64,000 nucleotides of DNA from Gordonia westfalica (GTDB taxonomy: Bacteria > Actinomycetota > Actinomycetes > Mycobacteriales > Mycobacteriaceae). This document shows, one piece after another, positions 8,841 to 18,187 of this stretch. Both the position numbers and the translations under genes were made by a program. Each line of letters begins with the position of its first letter. The first letter of the stretch is position 1. The notes under the pieces were generated by a model. It ran no database searches. It was not told the DNA's origin and was given only the letters and a program-made list of their open reading frames with translations. The stretch covers positions 372,001 to 436,000 of the forward strand of contig NZ_FNLM01000036.1 of the NCBI RefSeq assembly GCF_900105725.1, written 5' to 3'.

Positions 8841-10138
8841 ATGACAGTGAAGGTCGCGGCGGGCACAGGAGGCGCCGGAACCCGTTTGCTCGCAGGGGCA
8901 TCGGGTGTGGGCTTCATCCTCGCGATCTGCGGGTCCAACGCGATGACGCCGCTGCTGCCCGGATACATGGATCGCCATGGATTCGGGCCGGCCGCGGCGG
9001 CGGTACTGTTCGCGACCTACTTCGTCGCCCTCATCGTCATCCTGCTGATCTCCGCCCGCGGCCCGCTCATCCGTCACACGCGCAAGGTGCTGCCCATCGC
9101 GTTCAGCACGGCGATCGTCGGCGACCTCGTGGAGATCGTCGGCGCCTGGTATCCACTCGTACTGTTCCCCGGGCGTCTGATGACCGGTGCGTCGGTCGCC
9201 CTGAGTACCGGTGCGGCGGCGGCGATGATGGTGGCCGCGAAAGGCGAGAAGGGCCGCGCGTTCATGGCGACCGGGTCCCTCATCGGTGCCGGTACCGGTC
9301 TCATCGCCGCGATCCTCATCGCGGTGTACCTGCCCTGGCAGCTGGTGACCGTCTACGCGATCCACGCGGTCGTGATGACGATCTGCCTCGGTTTCCTGTT
9401 CGCCGGACTCCGGGCGGCTCCGGATCTCCTCGCGCTGGGCAGAGATCCGGTGCCCACCGTCGGACAGGAGATCGCGGACGTGCCCTCGGCCCACACCGGT
9501 GATCTCGACGTGGTGGTCGAGGAGTCCCGATCCCGTGATCCCGGCGCGTTCCTCGTCGGCGGTCTCGCATGGGCCATCGGCGCGCTCGCGGTGGGTGCCA
9601 TGCCGAATGCGATTCTCGCGACGGGCATCAGCGACTCGTTGCTCGTCGCGCAGTGCGTGGGCGGCGCATGCTTGATCGTCTCGATGCTCGCGAACTTCGC
9701 CGGCGTGGGGCTCCGCGTGATCACCTCACTGCCGTCCGTGGCGATCCTGCTGGCGGTCGGCTGGTCGATCGCCATCGCCGGTCTCGCGGGGGCCTTCTCG
9801 AGGTGATGCTGCTGGGGACCGTCATCGGCGGCATCGGCCAGGCCGGCGGGTACCGGGTCGCGTTGGCGTACATCACCGTCGGGCTCACGCCCATCCAGCA
9901 GGGACGCGTGGCGGCCACGTTCTCGGCCTTCGCCTACAGCGGGGCGGGGGTGATGGTGGTTCTCGACGGCATCGCCGGACAGCTGGCCGGAACCATCGGC
10001 GGGGCCGTGGTGATAGGTGTGGTCTACGCGGTCATGTCGGCGATCGCGATCGCGTTGGTGCTCCGTCGTGCGCGGTCGACGGCCATGCCGGCAGTGGCCC
10101 GTCCCGCGGATCGCGAGACGGCGGACACGACCTCCTGA
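8841..10138 (+). pseudogene. MFS-type transporter interrupted by one frameshift in a G run
   Basis: ATG 8841 follows a strong AGGAGG site. The first 321 residues carry about ten hydrophobic helices and end at a premature stop (9804-9806). One frame back, the protein continues without loss (EVMLLGTVIGGIGQAGGYRV and so on) to 10138, where two to three further helices complete an MFS of about 432 residues. The change is explained by one missing G in the GGGGG run at about 9787-9792. It is either a real inactivating mutation, a phase-variable tract or a sequencing error. The interrupted gene faces away from the amidotransferase. Confidence 0.75.
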
Positions 10139-10217: not shown

Positions 10218-11003
10218 ATGGCACCCGTCGCACGCGTCTCCGGTCCGATCACCTGGCTCGCCGTGATTCTCGCAGTGGCGCAGGTGGTGGCGCCGGTTGT
10301 GCCGTTCTCCGGGATCGGTGCATCGCCCAATGAGTCGACGACCGATCTGCTGATCACGCCGGCCGGGTGGACGTTCTCCATCTGGAGCCTGATCTACCTG
10401 CTGTCGCTCGTCTTCGCGCTCGCCGTGGTGTGGAAGGGATCGACGGGAACCGCCGACCAGCGGCGTCTTCTCATCGATCTCGAGATCGCCTTCGCCGGCG
10501 CGGCCATCTGGATTCTGGTGTCCGCCGCGGAATGGACATGGGTCACCCCGATCGTGCTGACCGTCATGACGGTGGTGTTGCTCGACGCCGCACGGATCGC
10601 GGCGCGTCCCGCCGACGACGCGGCGCCGGGGTGGCTGCGGGTGCTCGCCCGCATCCTGGTCGGCGTCTACGCAGCATGGGCGACGGCCGCGGTCTTCCAG
10701 AACTGGGCGGCCGCCATCGGCGCCGACCTCGCCGACCCGCAGTCCCTCGGCTGGCAGCTCACGATCCTGATCCTGTGCGCCCTGTTCGGCCTCGCGGTGA
10801 CCGCCGCGGTCGGGTCCGTGCTGGTCGCCTATCCATTGACGCTGATCTGGGCGTTCCTCGGCATCCTGGCCACAGCGCAGGGCGAGACGACTGCCGTCGT
10901 GGGCGTCTCCATCGCGACGATCGTGGCGCTGGTGGTCACGACGGGCGTCCTGTTCGTGCTGCGGCGTCGAGGCGGGGCGCGTGACGCGGTCGGAGTGTCC
11001 TAA
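10218..11003 (+). CDS. TspO/MBR-like integral membrane protein
   Basis: 261 residues from ATG 10218 (GGGAG site about 4 nt away; an alternative GTG at 10200 is in frame). There are seven to eight hydrophobic segments. The block TPAGWTFSIWSLIYLLSL resembles the PxxxFxxxWxxLY signature of tryptophan-rich sensory TspO/MBR proteins, and Trp residues are frequent. The size is larger than classical five-helix TspO (about 160 residues), so it belongs to the longer related group whose role is not known. Confidence 0.6.
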   Translation: MAPVARVSGPITWLAVILAVAQVVAPVVPFSGIGASPNESTTDLLITPAGWTFSIWSLIYLLSLVFALAVVWKGSTGTADQRRLLIDLEIAFAGAAIWILVSAAEWTWVTPIVLTVMTVVLLDAARIAARPADDAAPGWLRVLARILVGVYAAWATAAVFQNWAAAIGADLADPQSLGWQLTILILCALFGLAVTAAVGSVLVAYPLTLIWAFLGILATAQGETTAVVGVSIATIVALVVTTGVLFVLRRRGGARDAVGVS

Positions 11004-11038
11004 GGCGTTCTGCCGCGGGCCACATCGTCGTCGGCTCC

Positions 11039-11044
11039 TAGAAT
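11039..11044 (+). promoter_or_regulatory. -10 element (TAGAAT) for leaderless lacI-type gene
   Basis: TAGAAT ends 7 nt before the GTG start codon at 11052, so transcription should begin at the codon itself. There is no ribosome site between them, as is common for leaderless actinobacterial genes. Confidence 0.5.
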
Positions 11045-11051
11045 CTCCCTC

Positions 11052-12086
11052 GTGCGCAACAAACCCGTCACGGGGTACGACGTCGCCCGCCGGGCCGGGG
11101 TGTCACAGTCGACGGTGTCGCGTGCGTTGCGCGACGACCCGCGGGTGATCAAGGAGACCCGCGACCAGATCCAGGCTCTGGCCAAGGAGATGGGGTACGT
11201 CCCGCACGTCACCGCGCGGAGTCTCATCACGCGTCGGTCGTCGACGATCGGGGTGGTGACCGGTGACCTGCGGAACCCGTCTTTTCCGGTTCTCGCCAAC
11301 ACACTTCAGGACCGGTTCGCCCGCGACGACTATCGCGTGTTGCTGCTGAGTGACCGCGAGGGCTCGACGGACACCCTGGACAAGGACCTCGAGGCGCTGC
11401 GCGGGGGACTCGTCGACGGCGTCGTCTACATCTCGGCCCGTCTCGATTCGCCGGTGGTGTCGCAGATGCTGGACTGGCGGATGCCGCTGGTCATCCTCAG
11501 CCGCGACGTCGACGGTGCGCAGGCGGGACGCGTCGACCGCGTCACCTCCGACAACATCGGTGGCGGCCGGCTCGTCGCGCAGCACCTCGTGGAGCTGGGG
11601 CATCGTCGTGTCGGACTGATCTCCGGGCCGGTCGACAACCCGAGCATCAAACTCCGCGAGACCGGGTTCCGGGATGAACTGGCAAGGCTCGGAGTAGGTC
11701 TCGAGGAGGAGCTGGTGTACCGCGGCGACGTCGACGCCAAGACCGGCCTCGACGGCGGCTTGCGGTTGCTCGGCCGTGCCGATCGGCCCACGGCGCTGTT
11801 CTGCGCCACCGACTACGTCGCATTCGGAACGCTCGACGCGGCCAAACGGCTGGGACTTTCTGTGCCCGAAAATGTTTCGGTCGTGGGCTACAACGATCTC
11901 GACCTGGCGGGCTGGTCGATCTTCGACCTCGCCACCGTCCGTCAGCCACTCGAGGACATGGCACTCGCCGCAGCCGAGTTGCTGCTGGCGCGCATCGACG
12001 GCGCTGCGGGCGGCCCCGTGCACCGCCAGTTCGGCGTCGAATGGGTCCGGCGCGGCAGCGTCGGCCCGCGCGCCGAGCAGGTGTGA
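11052..12086 (+). CDS. LacI-family transcriptional regulator of the rut-like operon
   Basis: 344 residues. The LacI helix-turn-helix opens the protein ([21 protein letters not shown], residues 6-26) with a hinge helix ([16 protein letters not shown]). A periplasmic-binding-protein-like sensor domain follows ([46 protein letters not shown]). It sits 218 bp upstream of rutA on the same strand. A TTCGAA-centred dyad of LacI type overlaps the predicted rutA promoter. The E. coli Rut system is instead controlled by the TetR protein RutR, so the effector here may differ. Confidence 0.92.
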
Positions 12087-12130
12087 ACGACGTCTCCGAG
12101 CCCGGCAACACTTCCGTAACCGTCGGATCA

Positions 12131-12167
12131 TCGACACGCAAAAACCCCTGCATACATTCGAATGCAT
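12131..12167 (+). promoter_or_regulatory. rutA promoter with overlapping LacI-type operator
   Basis: A -35-like TCGACA (12131-12136) is 16 bp from a -10-like TACATT (12153-12158). Across the -10 lies the dyad ATACATTCGAATGCAT (12152-12167), with a perfect CATTCGAATG core and a central CG, which is the usual symmetry of LacI-family operators. Repression by the adjacent regulator is inferred. The remaining about 135 nt to the ATG would be a leader. Confidence 0.55.
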
Positions 12168-12304
12168 CCAGTTCGGGGCGACCCGGCCGACACGGCCGGA
12201 GGGCGGCATCGAGGCCACCACTGGACCGCAATCCATCGGCGGAGACCAGGCGCGGCATCGCGGCGCGCGCGGGGTTTCACACGACAACGCAGCGTAGGAG
12301 TGAC

Positions 12305-13387
12305 ATGGAAATCGGCGTCTTCATCCCCATCGGCAACAACGGCTGGCTCATCTCCAAGAGCGCGCCCCAGTACATGCCGTCGTTCGAGCTGAACAAGACC
12401 ATCGTGCAGAAGGCCGAGGAGCACGGCCTCGACTTCGCCCTGTCGATGATCAAGCTCCGCGGGTTCGGTGGTGACACCGAGTTCTGGGACCACAACCTCG
12501 AATCCTTCACGCTCATGGCGGGTCTCGCGGCGGTCACCGACAGGATCAAACTGTTCGCCTCGACCGCGATCCTCACCCTGCCGCCGGCAATCGTCGCGCG
12601 GATGACGAGCACCATCGACTCGATCGCCCCGGGACGGTTCGGTGTGAACATCGTGACCGGTTGGGCGCCCGGCGAATACACGCAGATGGGGCTGTGGCCG
12701 GGCGAGGAGTACTTCGGCTACCGGTACGAGCAGGCCGGAGAGTACGTGAAGGTCCTGCGTGAGCTGTGGGCCGACGGCTCCAGCGATTTCAAGGGCAAGC
12801 ATTACACGATGGACGACTGCGTCCTGTCCCCGCCGCCGGCAGCCAAGACGGCACCGATCGTCGCAGCGGGACAGTCGAACACCGGCATGAAGTTCGCCGC
12901 GGAGAACGCCGACTTCAACTTCGTCCTCGGTTCGGGGGTGAACACACCTCTGGCCGTGCAGGAGTCGACCGCGACCCTCGTCGCCGCCGCCAGGGAAACG
13001 GGCCGTGAGGTCGGGGCCATGGTCCTGTTCATGATCATCGCCGACGAGACCGATGAAGCGGCACAGGCGAAGTGGCAGGATTATCACGACAACGCCGACC
13101 TCGCCGCGCTCGGCTACATGGCCGACGAGTCGGCCGCCGACGCGACCGCCGACGACAGCTCGACCGCCAAGACGATCTCGCTGCCCGAGGGCGCGGTGAA
13201 CTTCAACATGGGCACCCTCGTCGGTTCGTACGAGACCATCGCGAAGATGCTCGACCAGGTCGCCGAGCTCGAAGGGGTGAAGGGCATCATGCTGACCTTC
13301 GACGACTTCGTGCAGGGGGTGGACACGTTCGGAACGAAGATCCAGCCGTTGATGAGGTGCCGCCAGGAGGACGTCGTCGCGGCGTGA
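12305..13387 (+). CDS. rutA: RutA-type FMN-dependent pyrimidine monooxygenase
   Basis: 360 residues from ATG 12305 with a TAGGAG site. It closely matches the RutA flavin-monooxygenase pattern (luciferase-like fold): [78 protein letters not shown] and [12 protein letters not shown]. In E. coli RutA opens the uracil or thymine ring between N3 and C4, using reduced FMN and O2, to give ureidoacrylate (peracid). The reductase encoded at 16958 could supply the reduced flavin. An inverted-repeat terminator follows directly, so read-through to the nitrilase gene may be partial. Orthology is strong; the exact pyrimidine is not proven. Confidence 0.88.
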
Positions 13388-13392
13388 GACGA

Positions 13393-13430
13393 CACCTGGT
13401 GGGCGGGCCGGATGGTCTGCTCACCAGGTG
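13393..13430 (+). terminator. Stem-loop after rutA
   Basis: A perfect 9-bp inverted repeat, CACCTGGTG (13393-13401) and CACCAGGTG (13422-13430), starts 6 nt after the rutA stop and is followed by GTTTCG. It has no long T run, as is usual for actinobacterial terminators. Confidence 0.5.
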
Positions 13431-13615
13431 GTTTCGATACGGCTCGTCGCAAGCTCCTCGCCTACTCAACCGGCGGGGAAGCAGCTCGCCGCAAGCTCGG
13501 CCATGGTGGCCGAGTAGGCCCGAGGCGCCGGCCGAGGGGCGTATCGAGGTCAACCGGCGGGGAAGCGGCTCGTCGCAAGCTCGGCCCTGCCGGCCGAGGG
13601 GCGTATCGAGGTCGA
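13429..13615. repeat. Intergenic GC-rich repeat array with direct and inverted copies
   Basis: Between rutA and the nitrilase gene the module CAACCGGCGGGGAAGC, followed by RGCTCGYCGCAAGCTCGGCC, occurs twice (13468-13502 and 13551-13586). The module CCGGCCGAGGGGCGTATCGA, with GGTC next, also occurs twice (13528-13551 and 13590-13613). The left end (GGTTTCGATACGGCTCGTCG ... CCTACTCAACC) is the approximate inverted counterpart of GGCCGAGTAGGC ... GCGTATCGAGGTC. Such GTTTCGATACG...TACTCAACC modules look like the dispersed intergenic repeats of Gordonia genomes. No coding potential is evident. Confidence 0.65.
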
Positions 13616-13642
13616 CCAGGCGGGGATTCGAGAAGGGTGAAG

Positions 13643-14626
13643 ATGGTGCAGGCGTTGGATATTGCTGTCGTGCAGATCGGTGAGCTCACCGAGGATGTCG
13701 ACCACAATCTGGATCGACTCGTCGATGCGGTCGAGGCCGCGACGGAAGGGGATGTGCCCGACCTCGTCGTCTTGCCCGAGCTGATCACCGCGCCGTACTT
13801 CTGCACCAGCCACGACACCGACCGGACGGGATGGACGCAGACCATCCCCGGGGCGGCGACCGCACGGTTCGCCACCATCTCACGAAAGCGCGGATGTGCC
13901 ATCGCATTCGGTACCTACGAGCGGACGACGGACGGAACGTTCCACAACTCGGTCGTCATCGTCGACGGGTCGGGGGAGATCGTCGAGTGGCGAACCCCGC
14001 ATGGTGGCCTGATGCCCGCGTATCGGAAGCTGTCGCTGCCGGCGAGCAAGGTCAGCGGTATCGACATCGACGAGAAGTACCACTTCGCTCCGGGGCCGGC
14101 GCCTGCCACCGCCGATCTGCTCGGCACCCGCTTCGGGTGCGTCATCTGCTACGACCGGACCTTCCCCGAGTACTGGGCGGTCGCCCGCGCGCTCGGCGCC
14201 GAGGTGATGCTGGCCGTCGTCTCGTCGCTCGGCTCCCGCGAGGACCTCTTCCTCGCCGAATTGCAGACGCGTGCACTGGAATCCCAGACCTGGGTCATCG
14301 CGGCCAACCGGGCCGGGCCCGAGACGCTCAACGGGGTCACCGTCGACTACTTCGGGTTGTCCTGCGTCATCGCCCCCAATGGCGAGATCGTCGCGCTGGC
14401 GCCTGCACATCGATCGGGCGAGACACTGCGATTCACCATAGACCTGGACCGGGTCACCGAGGCGCGACGCGCGCTGCCGCTGCGACGCGATCGCCGTGCC
14501 GATGTGATATCGCTGCTGGACGATCTGACCTCCGGTGTTCTACAACCACTTCCGGTTGATCGACGGTCGGGCCGCGACGACGACGCGCTTCCGACGACCG
14601 TCACCCCGATCGGGACGCGAGGGTGA
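13643..14626 (+). CDS. Nitrilase-superfamily carbon-nitrogen hydrolase
   Basis: 327 residues from ATG 13643, with a GAAGG site 6 nt upstream; a GTG two codons earlier is also possible. The Glu-Lys-Cys triad of the superfamily can be placed: Glu in VVLPELITAPYF, Lys in MPAYRKLSLP and Cys in FGCVICYDRTFPEYW. Homologous branches include beta-ureidopropionases, N-carbamoyl-amino-acid amidohydrolases and omega-amidases. In this operon a role in removing carbamate or ammonia from the RutA ring-opening product is plausible but inferred. The stop overlaps the GTG of the next small ORF (GTGA), showing tight coupling. Confidence 0.85.
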   Translation: MVQALDIAVVQIGELTEDVDHNLDRLVDAVEAATEGDVPDLVVLPELITAPYFCTSHDTDRTGWTQTIPGAATARFATISRKRGCAIAFGTYERTTDGTFHNSVVIVDGSGEIVEWRTPHGGLMPAYRKLSLPASKVSGIDIDEKYHFAPGPAPATADLLGTRFGCVICYDRTFPEYWAVARALGAEVMLAVVSSLGSREDLFLAELQTRALESQTWVIAANRAGPETLNGVTVDYFGLSCVIAPNGEIVALAPAHRSGETLRFTIDLDRVTEARRALPLRRDRRADVISLLDDLTSGVLQPLPVDRRSGRDDDALPTTVTPIGTRG

Positions 14627-14760
14627 CCGCAACCCACTGCCCGGAACTCGGCACCCAGGTGCGGATCGCGCGAGGCCGTGCGCCCGCCGCGATCGACTAC
14701 ATCAGAGCGCTGAGCCAACGGGCGCCTGCGCTCACCGACCATCACCGGCGTCGTCCATGA
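14623..14760 (+). CDS. 45-residue ORF coupled between nitrilase and MFS genes
   Basis: GTG 14623 overlaps the nitrilase stop (GTGA), and the ORF's stop overlaps the MFS start (ATGA at 14757). The predicted protein begins VTATHCPELGTQVRIARGRA and ends in a His/Arg-rich tail (DHHRRRP). Third codon positions are mostly G or C, like real genes here. It has no membrane segment and I know no family. It is either a microprotein or a ribosome-relay ORF that keeps translation coupled between its neighbours. Confidence 0.45.
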   Translation: MTATHCPELGTQVRIARGRAPAAIDYIRALSQRAPALTDHHRRRP

Positions 14761-16256
14761 GTGAGGTGTCCACGTGCGGTGCGATGCTGCACCCACACCC
14801 GTGGCGGGTGTTCGCCGCCACGAGCATCGGTGTGATCGCGGTCTTCGTCGCGATGAGCGGGCTGACGGTCGCCCTGCCGACGCTCAGTCGCGAACTCGAC
14901 GCGACGCCCACCCAGACGACGTGGATCCTGTTGGGCTACATGGTGGTCACCACCGCGCTGATCCTGGTGTTCGGCAGACTCGCCGACATCGTCGGACGCC
15001 GGCCGCTCTATCTGTCGGGCCTGATCGTGTTCACGCTCGCCTCCGCGTTGTGCATCGTGAGCCAGTCCGCCGAATTCCTCATCGTGGCGAGGATTCTGCA
15101 AGGTGTCGGAGCGGCGGCGGTGGTCACCAACAACACGGCGCTGCTGACCGACACCTTTCCGCCCCATCTGCTCAGCCAGGCGCTCGGCTGGAACGCGACG
15201 GTCGCCGCGCTCGGACAGATCATCGGACCCGTCGTCGGCGGTGCGGCGACCGCGCTGATCGGGTGGCGAGGACTGTTCGTCGCGGTGCTCGGGATCGCGC
15301 TGATCGCCACCGTGTCGTCGTTGCTCGTGATCCCGCGCAGCGTGGGCCGCATCCGCTCCCGCGAACCGTTCGACCTCGGCGGTGCGTTACTGGCGACCAC
15401 ACTGCTGACGGTCGTCGTGCTGGCCCTGACCCCGGGTCCGGGTTCAGCCGCCTGGCTGCCCTGGTCGTACGCGGCGGTCGGCGTCATCGTCGCCGTGGTG
15501 CTGGTGGTCGTCCAACGCCGGCGTGCCCACCCGCTCATCGACCTGACGCTGTTCGCCGACCGTGGCATCTCGCTGGTGCTCCTCGCCGGTCTGCTCACCG
15601 CGACGGCGACCTACGCGGTGGCCCTGATCATCTCGCTGTATGTGCAGGCCGTGGACGGGACATCCCCGTTCGTCGCCGGTCTGCTCGTCACGCCGGTCGC
15701 GGCCGGTACCGTCATCGCGGCGTCGGCCGCGGGGTGGCTGGTCACCAGAATCGCGCCTCGAACCCTTGCCGCGTCGGGAATGGTGCTGAACACCGCCGGC
15801 GTCCTGGGGGTGGCCCTCGTGCTGTCGGCCGACGGTTCGCTGCCGGTGACCGCACTGTTCCTGTTCCTGATCGGCACCGGCATCGGGTTGTTCATGACGC
15901 CGAGCACGAGCGTGCTGATGCTGACCGTGCCGGCGCAGCGGCGCGGCATCGCGAACGGGATGCGCTCGACGCTGCAGAACGTCGGAAATCTGCTCAGCAC
16001 CGCGATAGTCGTCGCGATCGTCCCGATCGGGCTCGGTGCGGCTGCACAACAGGCGGCGTACGGCGGGTCCCCGGCCGCCTTCGACGCCGCCGAATTCAAC
16101 CGGTTCGTGGACAACCTCCAACTCGCCGGCGTCGTGCTCGGAGCGCTGTCCGCGGTGGGGATCGTTGTGTGTCTATGCTTTCCGCGACATCAGATGCCCA
16201 GGACCCAGGATACGGCGCCCGTCCCCGAATACGCCACGACGAAGGAGTCAGCATGA
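14757..16256 (+). CDS. DHA2-type MFS transporter of the rut-like operon
   Basis: 499 residues from ATG 14757 (overlapping the upstream small ORF). It has 14 predicted helices. Helix 1 ends VALPTLSRELD, motif A is FGRLADIVGRRPLY, and motif C-like ALGQIIGPVVGGAATALIG lies in helix 5. Canonical Rut operons carry the NCS2 uracil permease RutG instead, so this may import an unusual pyrimidine or export a toxic intermediate. Its stop overlaps the next gene (ATGA at 16253). Inner membrane; substrate unknown. Confidence 0.88.
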   Translation: MSEVSTCGAMLHPHPWRVFAATSIGVIAVFVAMSGLTVALPTLSRELDATPTQTTWILLGYMVVTTALILVFGRLADIVGRRPLYLSGLIVFTLASALCIVSQSAEFLIVARILQGVGAAAVVTNNTALLTDTFPPHLLSQALGWNATVAALGQIIGPVVGGAATALIGWRGLFVAVLGIALIATVSSLLVIPRSVGRIRSREPFDLGGALLATTLLTVVVLALTPGPGSAAWLPWSYAAVGVIVAVVLVVVQRRRAHPLIDLTLFADRGISLVLLAGLLTATATYAVALIISLYVQAVDGTSPFVAGLLVTPVAAGTVIAASAAGWLVTRIAPRTLAASGMVLNTAGVLGVALVLSADGSLPVTALFLFLIGTGIGLFMTPSTSVLMLTVPAQRRGIANGMRSTLQNVGNLLSTAIVVAIVPIGLGAAAQQAAYGGSPAAFDAAEFNRFVDNLQLAGVVLGALSAVGIVVCLCFPRHQMPRTQDTAPVPEYATTKESA

Positions 16257-16936
16257 GCGAAACCTCAGCGCCCGCATCGCCACGACTCGGACGGGCCGAG
16301 CAGGCAACCGATTACGCGCAGGCCGGTTTCGGGCAGGAACTGTTGCCGGGGGAGCGTCCCGCGCTGGTGCTCGTCGACCCGGCCCGCGCCTACATCGACC
16401 CCGACTGCGCGCTCTATGCGGGAGTGGAGGAGAACGTCGAGGCGATGCGGGCCCTGCTGGCGTCGGCCCGGGCGGCCGGCATCCCGGTGATCGTCACCGA
16501 GGTGCGACTACGGCGCGACGGTGCCGACGCCGGGATCTTCTTCCGAAAGGCGGGGACCCTCAAGGCATTCTGTGAGGGCAGTCCGTTCGGCGAGTTCATC
16601 GACGGTCTCGCGCCGCTGCCCGACGAGCTGCTGGTGACCAAGAAGTACGCGAGCGCCTTCTTCGGTACGAGCCTGAACTCCTACCTGACCTCGCTGCGGA
16701 TCGACACCGTGTTCCTGGCCGGTCTCTCGACCAGCGGGTGCGTCCGGGCCACCGCACTCGATACCATGCAGCACGGCTTCATCCCGATCGTCGTCGAAGA
16801 GGCTGTGGGAGATCGTGATCCGGCGATTCACCATGCCAATCTCTTCGACATGCAACAGAAGATGGCCGAGGTCTGGTCGCTGGCGCGCACCCAGGAGTTC
16901 CTCGGCCGGCTGACCGCACCGTCGACCGACGGCTGA
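16253..16936 (+). CDS. Isochorismatase-family cysteine hydrolase (N-carbamoylsarcosine amidase-like, RutB superfamily)
   Basis: 227 residues. The catalytic triad of the family is clear: Asp in LVLVDPARAYID, Lys in VTKKYASAFFGTSL and Cys in AGLSTSGCVRATALD. The spacing and the GFGQELLPGERPALVLVD opening look closer to N-carbamoylsarcosine amidohydrolases than to RutB itself. RutB of E. coli, which hydrolyses (peroxy)ureidoacrylate to release carbamate, belongs to the same fold family, so this enzyme could fill the RutB step. ATG 16253 overlaps the MFS stop and GAAGGAG precedes it. Cytoplasmic; substrate inferred. Confidence 0.85.
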   Translation: MSETSAPASPRLGRAEQATDYAQAGFGQELLPGERPALVLVDPARAYIDPDCALYAGVEENVEAMRALLASARAAGIPVIVTEVRLRRDGADAGIFFRKAGTLKAFCEGSPFGEFIDGLAPLPDELLVTKKYASAFFGTSLNSYLTSLRIDTVFLAGLSTSGCVRATALDTMQHGFIPIVVEEAVGDRDPAIHHANLFDMQQKMAEVWSLARTQEFLGRLTAPSTDG

Positions 16937-16957
16937 ACATCCACGAGAGGCACCGCC

Positions 16958-17455
16958 ATGACCACCACCGTCGTCGCAGGTAATCCCAAACCCGGTTCCC
17001 GCACGCTCGACGCCGCCAATCGGCTCGCCGAGTCGCTGACCGGGTCCGCACCCGACCACGTCGTCGACGTCATCGAACTCGGCCCGGGTCTCCTCGGCTG
17101 GGGCGACGAGAAGGTGAAGGCGGCCGTCGAAACCGTCGCGTCCTCGGACCTGGTCGCCTTCGCGAGCCCGACGTTCAAGGCGACCTACACCGGTGTCCTG
17201 AAGCTGTTCCTCGACCAGTTCGCCACCGGCGACGGTCTGCGCGGCGTCACCGCGGTGCCGCTGATGCTGGGTGCGGGTCCGGCGCACGCCATGGCGCCCG
17301 ACCTGCTGCTGAAGCCGGTGCTCGTCGAACTCGGCGCCGTGTGCCCGGTGCCCGGTCTGTACCTGATCGACTCGACCTACACGGAGGACACCCGGCTCGC
17401 CGACTACACCGAGCGGTGGGCGTCGGCGCTGCAGGTGCAGGCCTCCGAGGCCTGA
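16958..17455 (+). CDS. NADPH-dependent FMN reductase (flavodoxin fold)
   Basis: 165 residues. The N-terminal VVAGNPKPGSRTLDAA is the phosphate-binding loop of the SsuE/NADPH-FMN-reductase family, and ASPTFKATYTGVLKLFLDQF is the second flavin-binding block. Reduced FMN from this enzyme is the probable co-substrate of RutA. The usual RutF belongs to an unrelated split-barrel reductase family, so this is a functional substitution. It is last in the operon, 21 nt after the hydrolase; its stop TGA abuts the stop of the convergent gene (TGATCA at 17453-17458). Confidence 0.9.
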   Translation: MTTTVVAGNPKPGSRTLDAANRLAESLTGSAPDHVVDVIELGPGLLGWGDEKVKAAVETVASSDLVAFASPTFKATYTGVLKLFLDQFATGDGLRGVTAVPLMLGAGPAHAMAPDLLLKPVLVELGAVCPVPGLYLIDSTYTEDTRLADYTERWASALQVQASEA

Positions 17456-18187
17456 TCAGCCCTTCTGGGTCCGGCGGCTGCCGGCGTGCCAGTCCTCCTG
17501 CTCGGGCGCCTCGTCGTCGGTCACTCCGAACGCCCGCAGTTGCGGCTTCTCCCGGAGACTCCGCTTGAGTTCGGCGAATCCCGGGAAGCTCGCCAGCCCG
17601 ATCACGTGGTCCCACAACGTGACTGCGTCCTCGTCGCTCGGCAGGCGGCTGATGACCGGCCCGAAGAAGGCGACGCCCTCCGGCGGCCGGAAGTGGATGA
17701 TCGGTGTGCCGACGTCACGGCCGGTCAGTGCGAGCGCCTCCTCGGTCTCGGCTCGGATCTCCGCGTCGAAGTCGGTGTTCTCCAGTGCGTCGAGGTGGTG
17801 GGCGGGTAGTCCGAGGTCGTCCAGAACCGGCGTGAGGAACCCGACCGTACCTCGATGGTCGGTGTTGTCGACCGTGTACGTGCCGGTGTGTTCCTCGAAG
17901 AACTGCGTGCCCAGGGCGGTGTAGAACGGGCCGATGGGGGCTCGGCCGTGTTCACGACGGATACTCGCGGCGACGCGGAGCAGTCGGAGTCCGGCCGTGT
18001 GTCCGGCCTCGTACTCGGGCGGGAAGTGTTTGTCGTAGTCGATGTGCGCGTTCAGCAGTCGCAGCGAGATGAACCGCCAGTCGACGGTGTAGTCGCGCTG
18101 TGCCTGGACTTTCCGGACCCATTTGCTCGTCATCCAGGCGAACGGACAGACGGGATCGAAGTAGAAGTTGATGTCGGCGTCGGTCAT
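17456..18187 (-). CDS. DsbA-fold protein of the Rv2466c (mycothiol-dependent nitroreductase) family
   Basis: 243 residues, ATG 18187. The N-terminal thioredoxin-fold motif is FDPVCPFAWMTSKWV, with an inserted helical domain and a cis-Pro region near GTPIIHFRPPEGVAFFGPV. M. tuberculosis Rv2466c has a CPWC redox motif in the same place. Here the second Cys is Ala (CPFA), so only one redox thiol remains, which would favour mycothiol mixed-disulfide chemistry over disulfide exchange. The C-terminal tail (about 30 charged residues) is longer than in the paralogue at 42083. Convergent with the FMN reductase with no gap. Confidence 0.85.
   Translation of the reverse strand: MTDADINFYFDPVCPFAWMTSKWVRKVQAQRDYTVDWRFISLRLLNAHIDYDKHFPPEYEAGHTAGLRLLRVAASIRREHGRAPIGPFYTALGTQFFEEHTGTYTVDNTDHRGTVGFLTPVLDDLGLPAHHLDALENTDFDAEIRAETEEALALTGRDVGTPIIHFRPPEGVAFFGPVISRLPSDEDAVTLWDHVIGLASFPGFAELKRSLREKPQLRAFGVTDDEAPEQEDWHAGSRRTQKG

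What the first reader, a model, noticed from the sequence alone, without database searches (positions are those of the whole stretch)
11052..17455. Variant Rut-like operon with replaced regulator, transporter, hydrolases and flavin reductase
RutA is clear, but RutC, RutD, RutE, RutF, RutG and RutR equivalents are absent. In their place are a LacI regulator, a nitrilase-type hydrolase, an MFS exporter-type carrier, a carbamoylsarcosine-amidase-like isochorismatase and an SsuE-type FMN reductase. The overlapping start and stop codons from 14623 to 16256 show this is one functional unit. The substrate may be an unusual pyrimidine, hydantoin-like or ureide compound and not plain uracil. This is the best candidate here for an undescribed metabolic system.
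Basis: partly seen in the sequence, partly recalled or inferred. Interest (0 to 1): 0.7.

Follow-up and report, generated by a model that had tools for sequence, protein, structure and literature searches.

The report
Trimmed relative of uracil-breakdown operon
This stretch of an apparently Gordonia genome carries a cut-down copy of a conserved gene set, not described in the papers we could search, in which a uracil-opening type of oxygenase is paired with different hydrolases, transporters and a switch from those of the E. coli uracil pathway, so not every gene labelled RutA need serve simple uracil breakdown.

Summary
Window 11052-17455 encodes LacI, RutA (627 bits, cut-off 498), a nitrilase-type hydrolase, a DHA2 MFS, a carbamoylsarcosine-amidase/NicF-type isochorismatase (CSH) and an SsuE-type FMN reductase; no RutB-E match lies beside them. 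But the window's exact set is not the conserved unit. Relatives carry LacI-RutA-Nit-amidase-MFS-CSH plus SBP-ABC-permease-FMN reductase-second flavin reductase, often RibBA. Here the amidase is a 45-aa in-frame relic (14623-14760) and importer, second reductase and RibBA are missing. A 15-base candidate LacI operator precedes RutA and the importer, exactly twice in each of three whole genomes; the window form overlaps the only promoter-like site in the operon. RutAs with rutBCD neighbours form one 100/100 clade; the window's and other amidohydrolase-associated RutAs lie outside it. Most likely: inducible oxidative opening of a pyrimidine-2,4-dione, then C-N hydrolyses. Plain uracil/thymine or a derivative is unresolved: several hydrolases and a sugar-type importer favour a derivative; malonic semialdehyde reductase in one relative favours a uracil core. 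Eight answered paper searches (listings, some capped) showed no description of the set.

The parts
11052..12086 (+). LacI-family regulator, 344 aa, GTG start
   Evidence: orthologue directly upstream of RutA in most close relatives
12131..12158 (+). promoter-like site, -10 hexamer TACATT inside the candidate operator; only such site in 11000-17600
   Evidence: 1 found, shuffles mean 0.3
12152..12167 (+). candidate LacI operator ATACATTCGAATGCAT (core CATTCGAATG palindromic); counterpart of ATACATTCGAAGTCA in relatives
12305..13387 (+). RutA-type flavin-dependent monooxygenase, 360 aa
   Evidence: TIGR03612 627.5 bits vs 498.3; 62% identical to E. coli RutA over the aligned part; L65, N134, V136, W139, F224 kept, T105 is Ser, E292 is Asp
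13400..13640 (+). intergenic repeat, pieces found genome-wide
   Evidence: 37 matches in own genome incl. itself
13643..14626 (+). nitrilase-superfamily C-N hydrolase, 327 aa; Glu/Lys/Cys positions invariant in 12 relatives (catalytic role recalled)
   Evidence: beside RutA in relatives
14623..14760 (+). 45-aa in-frame relic of an AtzE-like amidase gene (about 550 aa in close relatives); keeps both start/stop overlaps
14757..16256 (+). DHA2-type MFS transporter, 499 aa
16253..16936 (+). isochorismatase-superfamily amidohydrolase of the N-carbamoylsarcosine amidase/NicF type (CSH), 227 aa
16958..17455 (+). SsuE-type NAD(P)H:FMN reductase, 165 aa

Best explanation
A LacI-controlled nitrogen-scavenging operon: a reduced copy of a conserved, RutA-centred catabolic regulon whose gene content differs from the E. 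coli rut operon. Proposed working: the LacI protein holds down one promoter through the site at 12152 until the substrate or a product binds it. The MFS brings in a pyrimidine-2,4-dione (uracil core). The FMN reductase feeds FMNH2 to RutA, which opens the ring between the N3 and C4 positions with O2, giving a ureido acid. CSH removes the carbamoyl group (the role of RutB), and the nitrilase, in complete copies also the AtzE-like amidase, cuts further C-N bonds of a substituted substrate. Shown by sequence: gene content, conservation, the conserved site, the relic, kept catalytic positions. Inferred: all reactions, the substrate, binding by LacI and its ligand. The window copy has lost the amidase, the ABC importer and flavin-supply genes, but its six remaining genes show purifying selection.
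For: RutA family score over cut-off; L65, N134, V136, W139 and F224 identical to E. coli in 38 of 38 other RutA rows. Co-location counts and canonical control. Much of the set recurs in Gordonia, Rhodococcus, Nocardia, Amycolatopsis, Curtobacterium, Glaciihabitans, Rathayibacter, Goekera, Zafaria and Ilumatobacter and in Rhizobium rhododendri and Palleronia; Allorhizobium ampelinum has RutA, nitrilase, isochorismatase, amidase and flavin reductase. Candidate operator: exact 15-mer in 16 of 18 LacI-RutA gaps (L085 and L161 are one genome), the other two (window, G. namibiensis) with a close form; a second copy before SBP in 8 of 8 loci that have both the site and SBP (6 genomes); 2 sites per whole genome in G166, G196 and G277, 3 in G675 (one with a mismatch), reversed pattern 0 in six genomes. 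CSH has the Asp/Lys/Cys positions and a GDR motif as in CSHase and NicF; the two RutBs aligned lack GDR (roles recalled). Malonic semialdehyde reductase in the Palleronia set. dN/dS 0.07-0.16 for the six genes against G. namibiensis. RutC and RutD are dispensable in E. coli (PMC8113886, passages), so their absence is no obstacle.
Against: Uracil would need one amidohydrolase after RutA, so nitrilase and amidase are unexplained; the importer is of the sugar type. 22 RutA positions separate the canonical clade from the others, 9 of them in 290-318, without a test of how many would separate any two clades. E292, which borders the substrate cavity, varies, though in canonical RutA too. Small-genome class relatives place RutA near CaiB-like and HMG-CoA-lyase-like genes (scores for one locus) and Ilumatobacter has a PrpB-like lyase, hinting at another carbon skeleton there. 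G493 and the second G068 copy have RutA with none of the partners. Loss of the amidase here, and of 57 aa of CSH in G. namibiensis, could mean decay.
Confidence: 0.6

Rival explanations
1. Plain uracil/thymine catabolism: the unit is a non-orthologous re-assembly of the Rut pathway, CSH replacing RutB, FMN reductase replacing RutF, MFS or ABC replacing RutG, LacI replacing RutR; the other hydrolases are accessory.
For: RutA equivalog score; RutA-CSH pairs without nitrilase or amidase in G018, G119 and G576; malonic semialdehyde reductase beside the Palleronia set; RutC/RutD dispensable in E. coli.
Against: RutA with two or more further hydrolase types in both Actinobacteria and Alphaproteobacteria; 4 of 10 tested genomes with RutA also have a D-hydantoinase-family protein over cut-off and might degrade uracil reductively (the window genome has none over cut-off).
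Confidence: 0.35
2. A different cyclic amide or N-heterocycle (not a pyrimidinedione) is opened by this RutA, giving a longer acid that enters CoA-dependent breakdown.
For: In five small-genome class loci read by a crude longest-ORF listing, CaiB-like genes in 4, HMG-CoA-lyase-like in 4 and acyl-CoA dehydrogenase in 2; CaiB- and acyl-CoA-dehydrogenase-like genes directly upstream of LacI in R. triatomae and about 6 kb upstream of RutA in G119; NicF-like CSH; RutA-like genes (43-46%) on Rhodococcus PD04 and Arthrobacter AK-1 plasmids near amidase, formamidase or C-N hydrolase genes.
Against: Malonic semialdehyde reductase in Palleronia; window RutA 62% identical to E. coli RutA with the same flavin/O2 residues; CaiB and dehydrogenase genes are very common in these genera (recalled), and in the proteins scored only HMG-CoA lyase and WrbA passed a curated cut-off.
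Confidence: 0.12
3. Flavin or lumichrome breakdown, suggested by RibBA/RibB and two flavin reductases in the regulon.
For: RibBA at the end of the unit in Rhodococcus, Gordonia rhizosphera and Nocardia higoensis; RibB in Thioclava.
Against: The published lumichrome pathway uses a P450, hydrolytic pyrimidine opening, Rieske and catechol dioxygenases and names no Rut protein (PMC12746152, start of abstract and passages); none of these was seen in the operon; RibBA is a synthesis gene and fits flavin supply.
Confidence: 0.03
4. In this strain the operon is a decaying remnant without function.
For: Amidase reduced to 45 aa; importer, second reductase and RibBA missing; RutA at E <= 1e-110 in only 4 of 59 genomes of the genus; CSH shortened in G. 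namibiensis.
Against: No internal stop in the six genes, dN/dS 0.07-0.16; both amidase deletions keep frame and overlaps; candidate operator kept and unique in the genome.
Confidence: 0.2

Closest known systems
E. coli Rut pathway (rutABCDEFG, RutR)
   Same: RutA orthologue, a separate flavin reductase, an isochorismatase-fold amidohydrolase, a dedicated regulator and transporter
   Different: No RutB, C, D or E match beside RutA; LacI, MFS, CSH, nitrilase and SsuE-type reductase instead; relatives add AtzE-like amidase, ribose-type ABC importer and often RibBA
N-carbamoylsarcosine amidohydrolase / maleamate amidohydrolase NicF
   Same: CSH is 35-40% identical, with Asp/Lys/Cys positions and GDR kept
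   Different: Sits with RutA; no creatinine or nicotinate pathway gene was noticed beside it (not searched for specifically)
Cyanuric acid pathway amidase AtzE and biuret hydrolases
   Same: The relatives' amidase scores best against the AtzE family among NCBI models (279 bits); among solved structures GatA comes first and a biuret hydrolase second
   Different: Below the AtzE cut-off of 461; only a relic in the window
Lumichrome (riboflavin) catabolic cluster of Nocardioides simplex
   Same: Degrades a uracil-type ring; several hydrolases
   Different: Hydrolytic opening, no Rut protein named (PMC12746152, passages)

Membership tests
Rut (uracil) pathway | RutA over family cut-off | tested here: met
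   627.5 vs 498.3 bits
Rut (uracil) pathway | RutB orthologue beside RutA | tested here: not met
   CSH 46 bits vs RutB cut-off 378; no RutB match near RutA
Rut (uracil) pathway | RutC, RutD, RutE near RutA | tested here: not met
   none near the window RutA and 0 of 28 RutA places; RutC and RutD in 9 of 9, RutE in 4 of 9 canonical controls
Rut (uracil) pathway | flavin reductase of the RutF (Flavin_Reduct) type | tested here: not met
   SsuE/FMN_red family instead; second, Flavin_Reduct-like gene only in relatives
Rut (uracil) pathway | RutG permease and RutR regulator | not tested
   operon transporter and regulator are of other families; RutG and RutR were not searched for by sequence
Rut (uracil) pathway | RutA inside the clade that has rutBCD neighbours | tested here: not met
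   10 rows with RutB/C/D neighbours or E. coli form one clade at 100/100, window outside
Rut (uracil) pathway | uracil opened to ureidoacrylate and used as nitrogen source | not testable with these tools
   needs assay and growth test
RutA-amidohydrolase set (proposed here) | RutA with CSH, nitrilase and AtzE-like amidase, LacI with its site | tested here: inconclusive
   RutA, CSH, nitrilase, LacI and site present; amidase only a 45-aa relic
N-carbamoylsarcosine amidase/NicF subfamily | Asp-Lys-Cys positions and GDR motif | tested here: met
   alignment; roles recalled from the literature
N-carbamoylsarcosine amidase/NicF subfamily | activity on N-carbamoylsarcosine or maleamate | not testable with these tools
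   needs assay

The most novel reading that the evidence does not exclude
RutA proteins outside the rutBCD clade belong to a separate, phylum-crossing catabolic system, possibly the older one, that imports an N-substituted or nucleoside-like pyrimidinedione through a ribose-type transporter, opens it oxidatively and strips it with several different amidohydrolases under a two-site LacI (elsewhere GntR-type) regulon that also boosts flavin supply; the current 'pyrimidine utilization protein A' annotation merges it with the uracil pathway.
Probability: 0.4. Interest if true: 0.75.

Novelty: new variant of a known kind. Interest (0 to 1): 0.55.

Why it matters
RutA is one of few enzymes reported to break an amide bond with a flavin-N5 oxygen species (PMC7662398, passages). 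The automatic family model gives all these proteins one name, yet their neighbours differ wholly. If the substrate differs, a pathway found in two phyla is unassigned; if it is uracil, it shows a non-orthologous rebuild of the pathway around one conserved oxygenase. The conserved site and gene set give a direct experimental handle.

Tried and rejected
Riboflavin/lumichrome catabolism: considered because of RibBA and two flavin reductases; disfavoured on gene content. Known RNA element such as an FMN riboswitch: no Rfam match at gathering score in six loci of relatives (the window was not scanned). Creatinine/hydantoin pathway: no hydantoinase or creatininase was noticed beside the operon, without a specific search there. 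AtzG-like partner of the amidase: no such Pfam match in two amidases with their N-terminal extensions or in the small proteins of Palleronia and Thioclava, and no convincing alignment. The importer's binding protein as a pointer to the ligand: model m0640da39d7a3 (mean pLDDT 81) matches ribose- and other sugar-binding proteins in the 50 rows listed, at 16-23% identity; no ligand follows. An amidase elsewhere in the genome standing in for the relic: the best other amidase is 37% identical over residues 82-538. A catalytic-site difference that would name the substrate: the published O2/flavin positions are unchanged and E292 varies in both clades. Literature: listings of searches (15 of 307, 20 of 80, 12 of 31 and 12 of 13 shown in the four capped ones) showed no paper on this set; some searches failed.
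Full report
What is there. RutA scores 627.5 bits against the RutA model with cut-off 498.3; the nitrilase is nearest N-carbamoylputrescine amidase (112 bits, cut-off 410), CSH matches RutB (46 bits, cut-off 378) and biuret hydrolase below cut-off, and the reductase matches SsuE below cut-off (72 bits, cut-off 164). In solved structures CSH is nearest N-carbamoylsarcosine amidohydrolases and 3ot4/3uao, which I recall as maleamate amidohydrolase NicF. Three start/stop overlaps join nitrilase, a 45-aa ORF, MFS and CSH. The organism is inferred: a same-genus genome (G117) has a contig of 38,525 bases like the Gordonia namibiensis NBRC 108229 record of L079.

The conserved unit is larger. RutA-anchored searches covered 301 genomes of the family (24 with a match at E <= 1e-60), 394 of the class (9 at <= 1e-110, own included) and 59 of the genus (4 at <= 1e-110, own included). 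I read the neighbourhoods of the 19 family places at 55% identity or more, all 8 further class places and one further genus place; of the 9 weaker family places (32-43%) I read 4 and left 5 (G204, G015, G135, G017, G213) unread. In the 28 strong places: nitrilase 20, CSH 15, an amidase gene 14 (one cut by a contig end, two of other amidase types), SBP 17, permease 17, RutB/C/D/E 0. Two of the 28 (G. namibiensis, R. triatomae) end 65 and 46 bases after RutA; in both, the nitrilase lies at the end of another contig, followed by amidase, MFS and CSH. Misses: G018, G119 and G576 have RutA-CSH only; G252 RutA plus another amidase; G493 and the second G068 copy none. The four weaker places read have none of the hydrolases; two of them have flavin reductases.

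Named relatives. A scan with the nitrilase alignment gave 60 loci; 35 of them (L079-L113) plus three others were examined for partners. RutA is in 27 of the 35; three more are cut by the contig end on the RutA side; five (L102, L108, L111-L113) have nitrilase without RutA. This search starts from the nitrilase and so cannot count how often nitrilase accompanies RutA. The order LacI-RutA-Nit-Amid-MFS-CSH-SBP-ABC-Perm-FMNr-FlvR-RibBA is complete in Rhodococcus ruber, R. zopfii and Gordonia rhizosphera; Amycolatopsis and Nocardia higoensis lack the ABC importer. Most Microbacteriaceae loci have SBP-ABC-Perm-RutA-Nit-Amid-MFS-CSH with TetR- and GntR-like regulators (read by eye) instead of LacI; Glaciihabitans has a LacI.

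Other phyla. Of 70 plasmid records with RutA-like proteins, 19 were opened. Palleronia and Rhizobium rhododendri carry RutA, amidases, the CSH-type isochorismatase, a related ribose-type importer, MFS and GntR, but no nitrilase match; Palleronia adds malonic semialdehyde reductase. Allorhizobium ampelinum S4 has RutA, nitrilase, isochorismatase, amidase, flavin reductase and MFS with an unrelated importer. Two near-identical Thioclava records have RutA, two amidases, flavin reductase and RibB. Novosphingobium has RutA with two amidases; Terrarubrum an amidase 7 kb away and an asparaginase; Roseomonas none of the partners. Two have distant RutA-like proteins. The other nine are canonical, with RutB, RutC and RutD in 9 of 9; seven of those were labelled rut in the records, two (L166, L167) were not annotated.

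Tree. With 44 RutA rows, the ten rows with rutBCD neighbours (E. coli by knowledge) form one clade at 100/100 that includes Rhodobacterales and Rhizobium, while Palleronia, Thioclava and R. rhododendri RutAs fall outside it with the Actinobacterial ones; that larger grouping is weak (80/86) and the variant label is not one clade (6 changes, 4 forced by well-supported branches). Gene content thus follows the RutA lineage rather than the organism in these cases. That the amidohydrolase context is older is suggested by its spread but rests on a midpoint root. RutA keeps published positions (given in PMC7662398 and PMC10005588, passages): L65, N134, V136, W139, F224; T105 is Ser in the window, allowed by the motif in PMC8234197 (passage). 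22 positions separate 10 canonical from 24 other rows, 9 of them in residues 290-318; how many would separate any two clades was not tested.

Regulation. All 18 LacI-RutA stretches have ATACATTCGAA or TTACATTCGAA; 16 have ATACATTCGAAGTCA exactly (L085 and L161 are one genome), the window and G. namibiensis end in TGCA instead. The 15-mer recurs before SBP in 8 of 8 loci that have both (6 genomes). In whole genomes (up to one mismatch) it occurs twice in G166, G196 and G277, three times in G675, not in G000 or G117; the reversed pattern never. The window form occurs once in its genome; in G117 once exactly and once elsewhere with two mismatches. Of the loci without a close LacI gene, only L062 has the exact site, and its genome has the LacI at its second RutA copy; Glaciihabitans has a window-like form, and the Rhodococcus MAG G287 (L065/L089) an extra window-like form between nitrilase and amidase. 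In the window the site covers the -10 hexamer of the only promoter-like match in the region. Binding is inferred. The two sites tie importer and following genes to the same switch.

The window copy is trimmed. Against G. namibiensis the amidase has lost 1215 and 288 bases, both in frame (worked out from the coordinates); the relic ORF keeps the overlaps with both neighbours. Importer, second flavin reductase and RibBA are missing beside the operon in both strains; G. namibiensis has an intact amidase but a CSH of 170 aa instead of 227. dN/dS between the two strains is 0.069 (RutA), 0.109 (CSH, retained part), 0.110 (LacI), 0.111 (nitrilase), 0.150 (reductase), 0.158 (MFS); three neighbouring genes 0.070-0.113. 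No other amidase in the genome is closer than 37%. Assembly error cannot be excluded without reads.

Mechanism. Shown: gene set, conservation, site, relic. Inferred: import, FMNH2 supply, RutA opening of an N-C(=O) ring bond, CSH removal of the carbamoyl group, nitrilase acting on a remaining amide or ureide, handling of the C3 product elsewhere. E. coli does without RutC and RutD (PMC8113886, passages). Uracil would need one hydrolase, so nitrilase and amidase point to a substituted substrate or a wider range; malonic semialdehyde reductase in Palleronia points to an unsubstituted C5-C6 part. Four of ten genomes with RutA also have a D-hydantoinase-family protein over cut-off, the window genome not, which does not decide the matter. 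The confidences given overlap: they are not exclusive alternatives.

Verdict. A real, conserved variant of the RutA theme, seen here in a reduced copy. 'Undescribed' rests on the listings of paper searches in an open-licence library, four of them capped; two further searches failed.

Noticed in passing
13400-13640: Intergenic stretch between RutA and nitrilase is a repeat with 37 matches genome-wide (itself included); the contig break of G. namibiensis falls at the same place.
   Followed up: partly
8841-10138: An MFS gene reads as two ORFs (321 and 110 aa in different frames), whereas G. namibiensis has one ORF of 431 aa; natural frameshift or sequencing error.
   Followed up: no
L163 (own genome C36:331667-332716): A second RutA-like protein (41% identical) in the same genome, with none of the partner genes within about 7 kb.
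   Followed up: partly
L143, L144, L146, L147, L148: Small-genome class relatives: RutA with nitrilase and ribose-type importer in all five; WrbA-, FMN-reductase-, RutD-like, CaiB-like, HMG-CoA-lyase-like and acyl-CoA dehydrogenase genes in some.
   Followed up: partly
L102, L108, L113: Puerhibacterium/Cellulosimicrobium loci: nitrilase and MFS relatives with genes that look like PuuE-type polysaccharide deacetylases and SsuBC-type permeases (read by eye), no RutA.
   Followed up: no
L057:8303-9355, L083:7653-8705: LacI gene of Rhodococcus ruber reads as two ORFs (154 and 192 aa), possible frameshift.
   Followed up: no
L052:5199-6035: An SDR-like gene between the FMN reductase and the DsbA-like gene of G. 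namibiensis is absent from the window.
   Followed up: no
L175, L176: RutA-like proteins (43-46%) on Rhodococcus PD04 and Arthrobacter AK-1 plasmids sit near amidase/formamidase or C-N hydrolase genes and flavin reductases.
   Followed up: no
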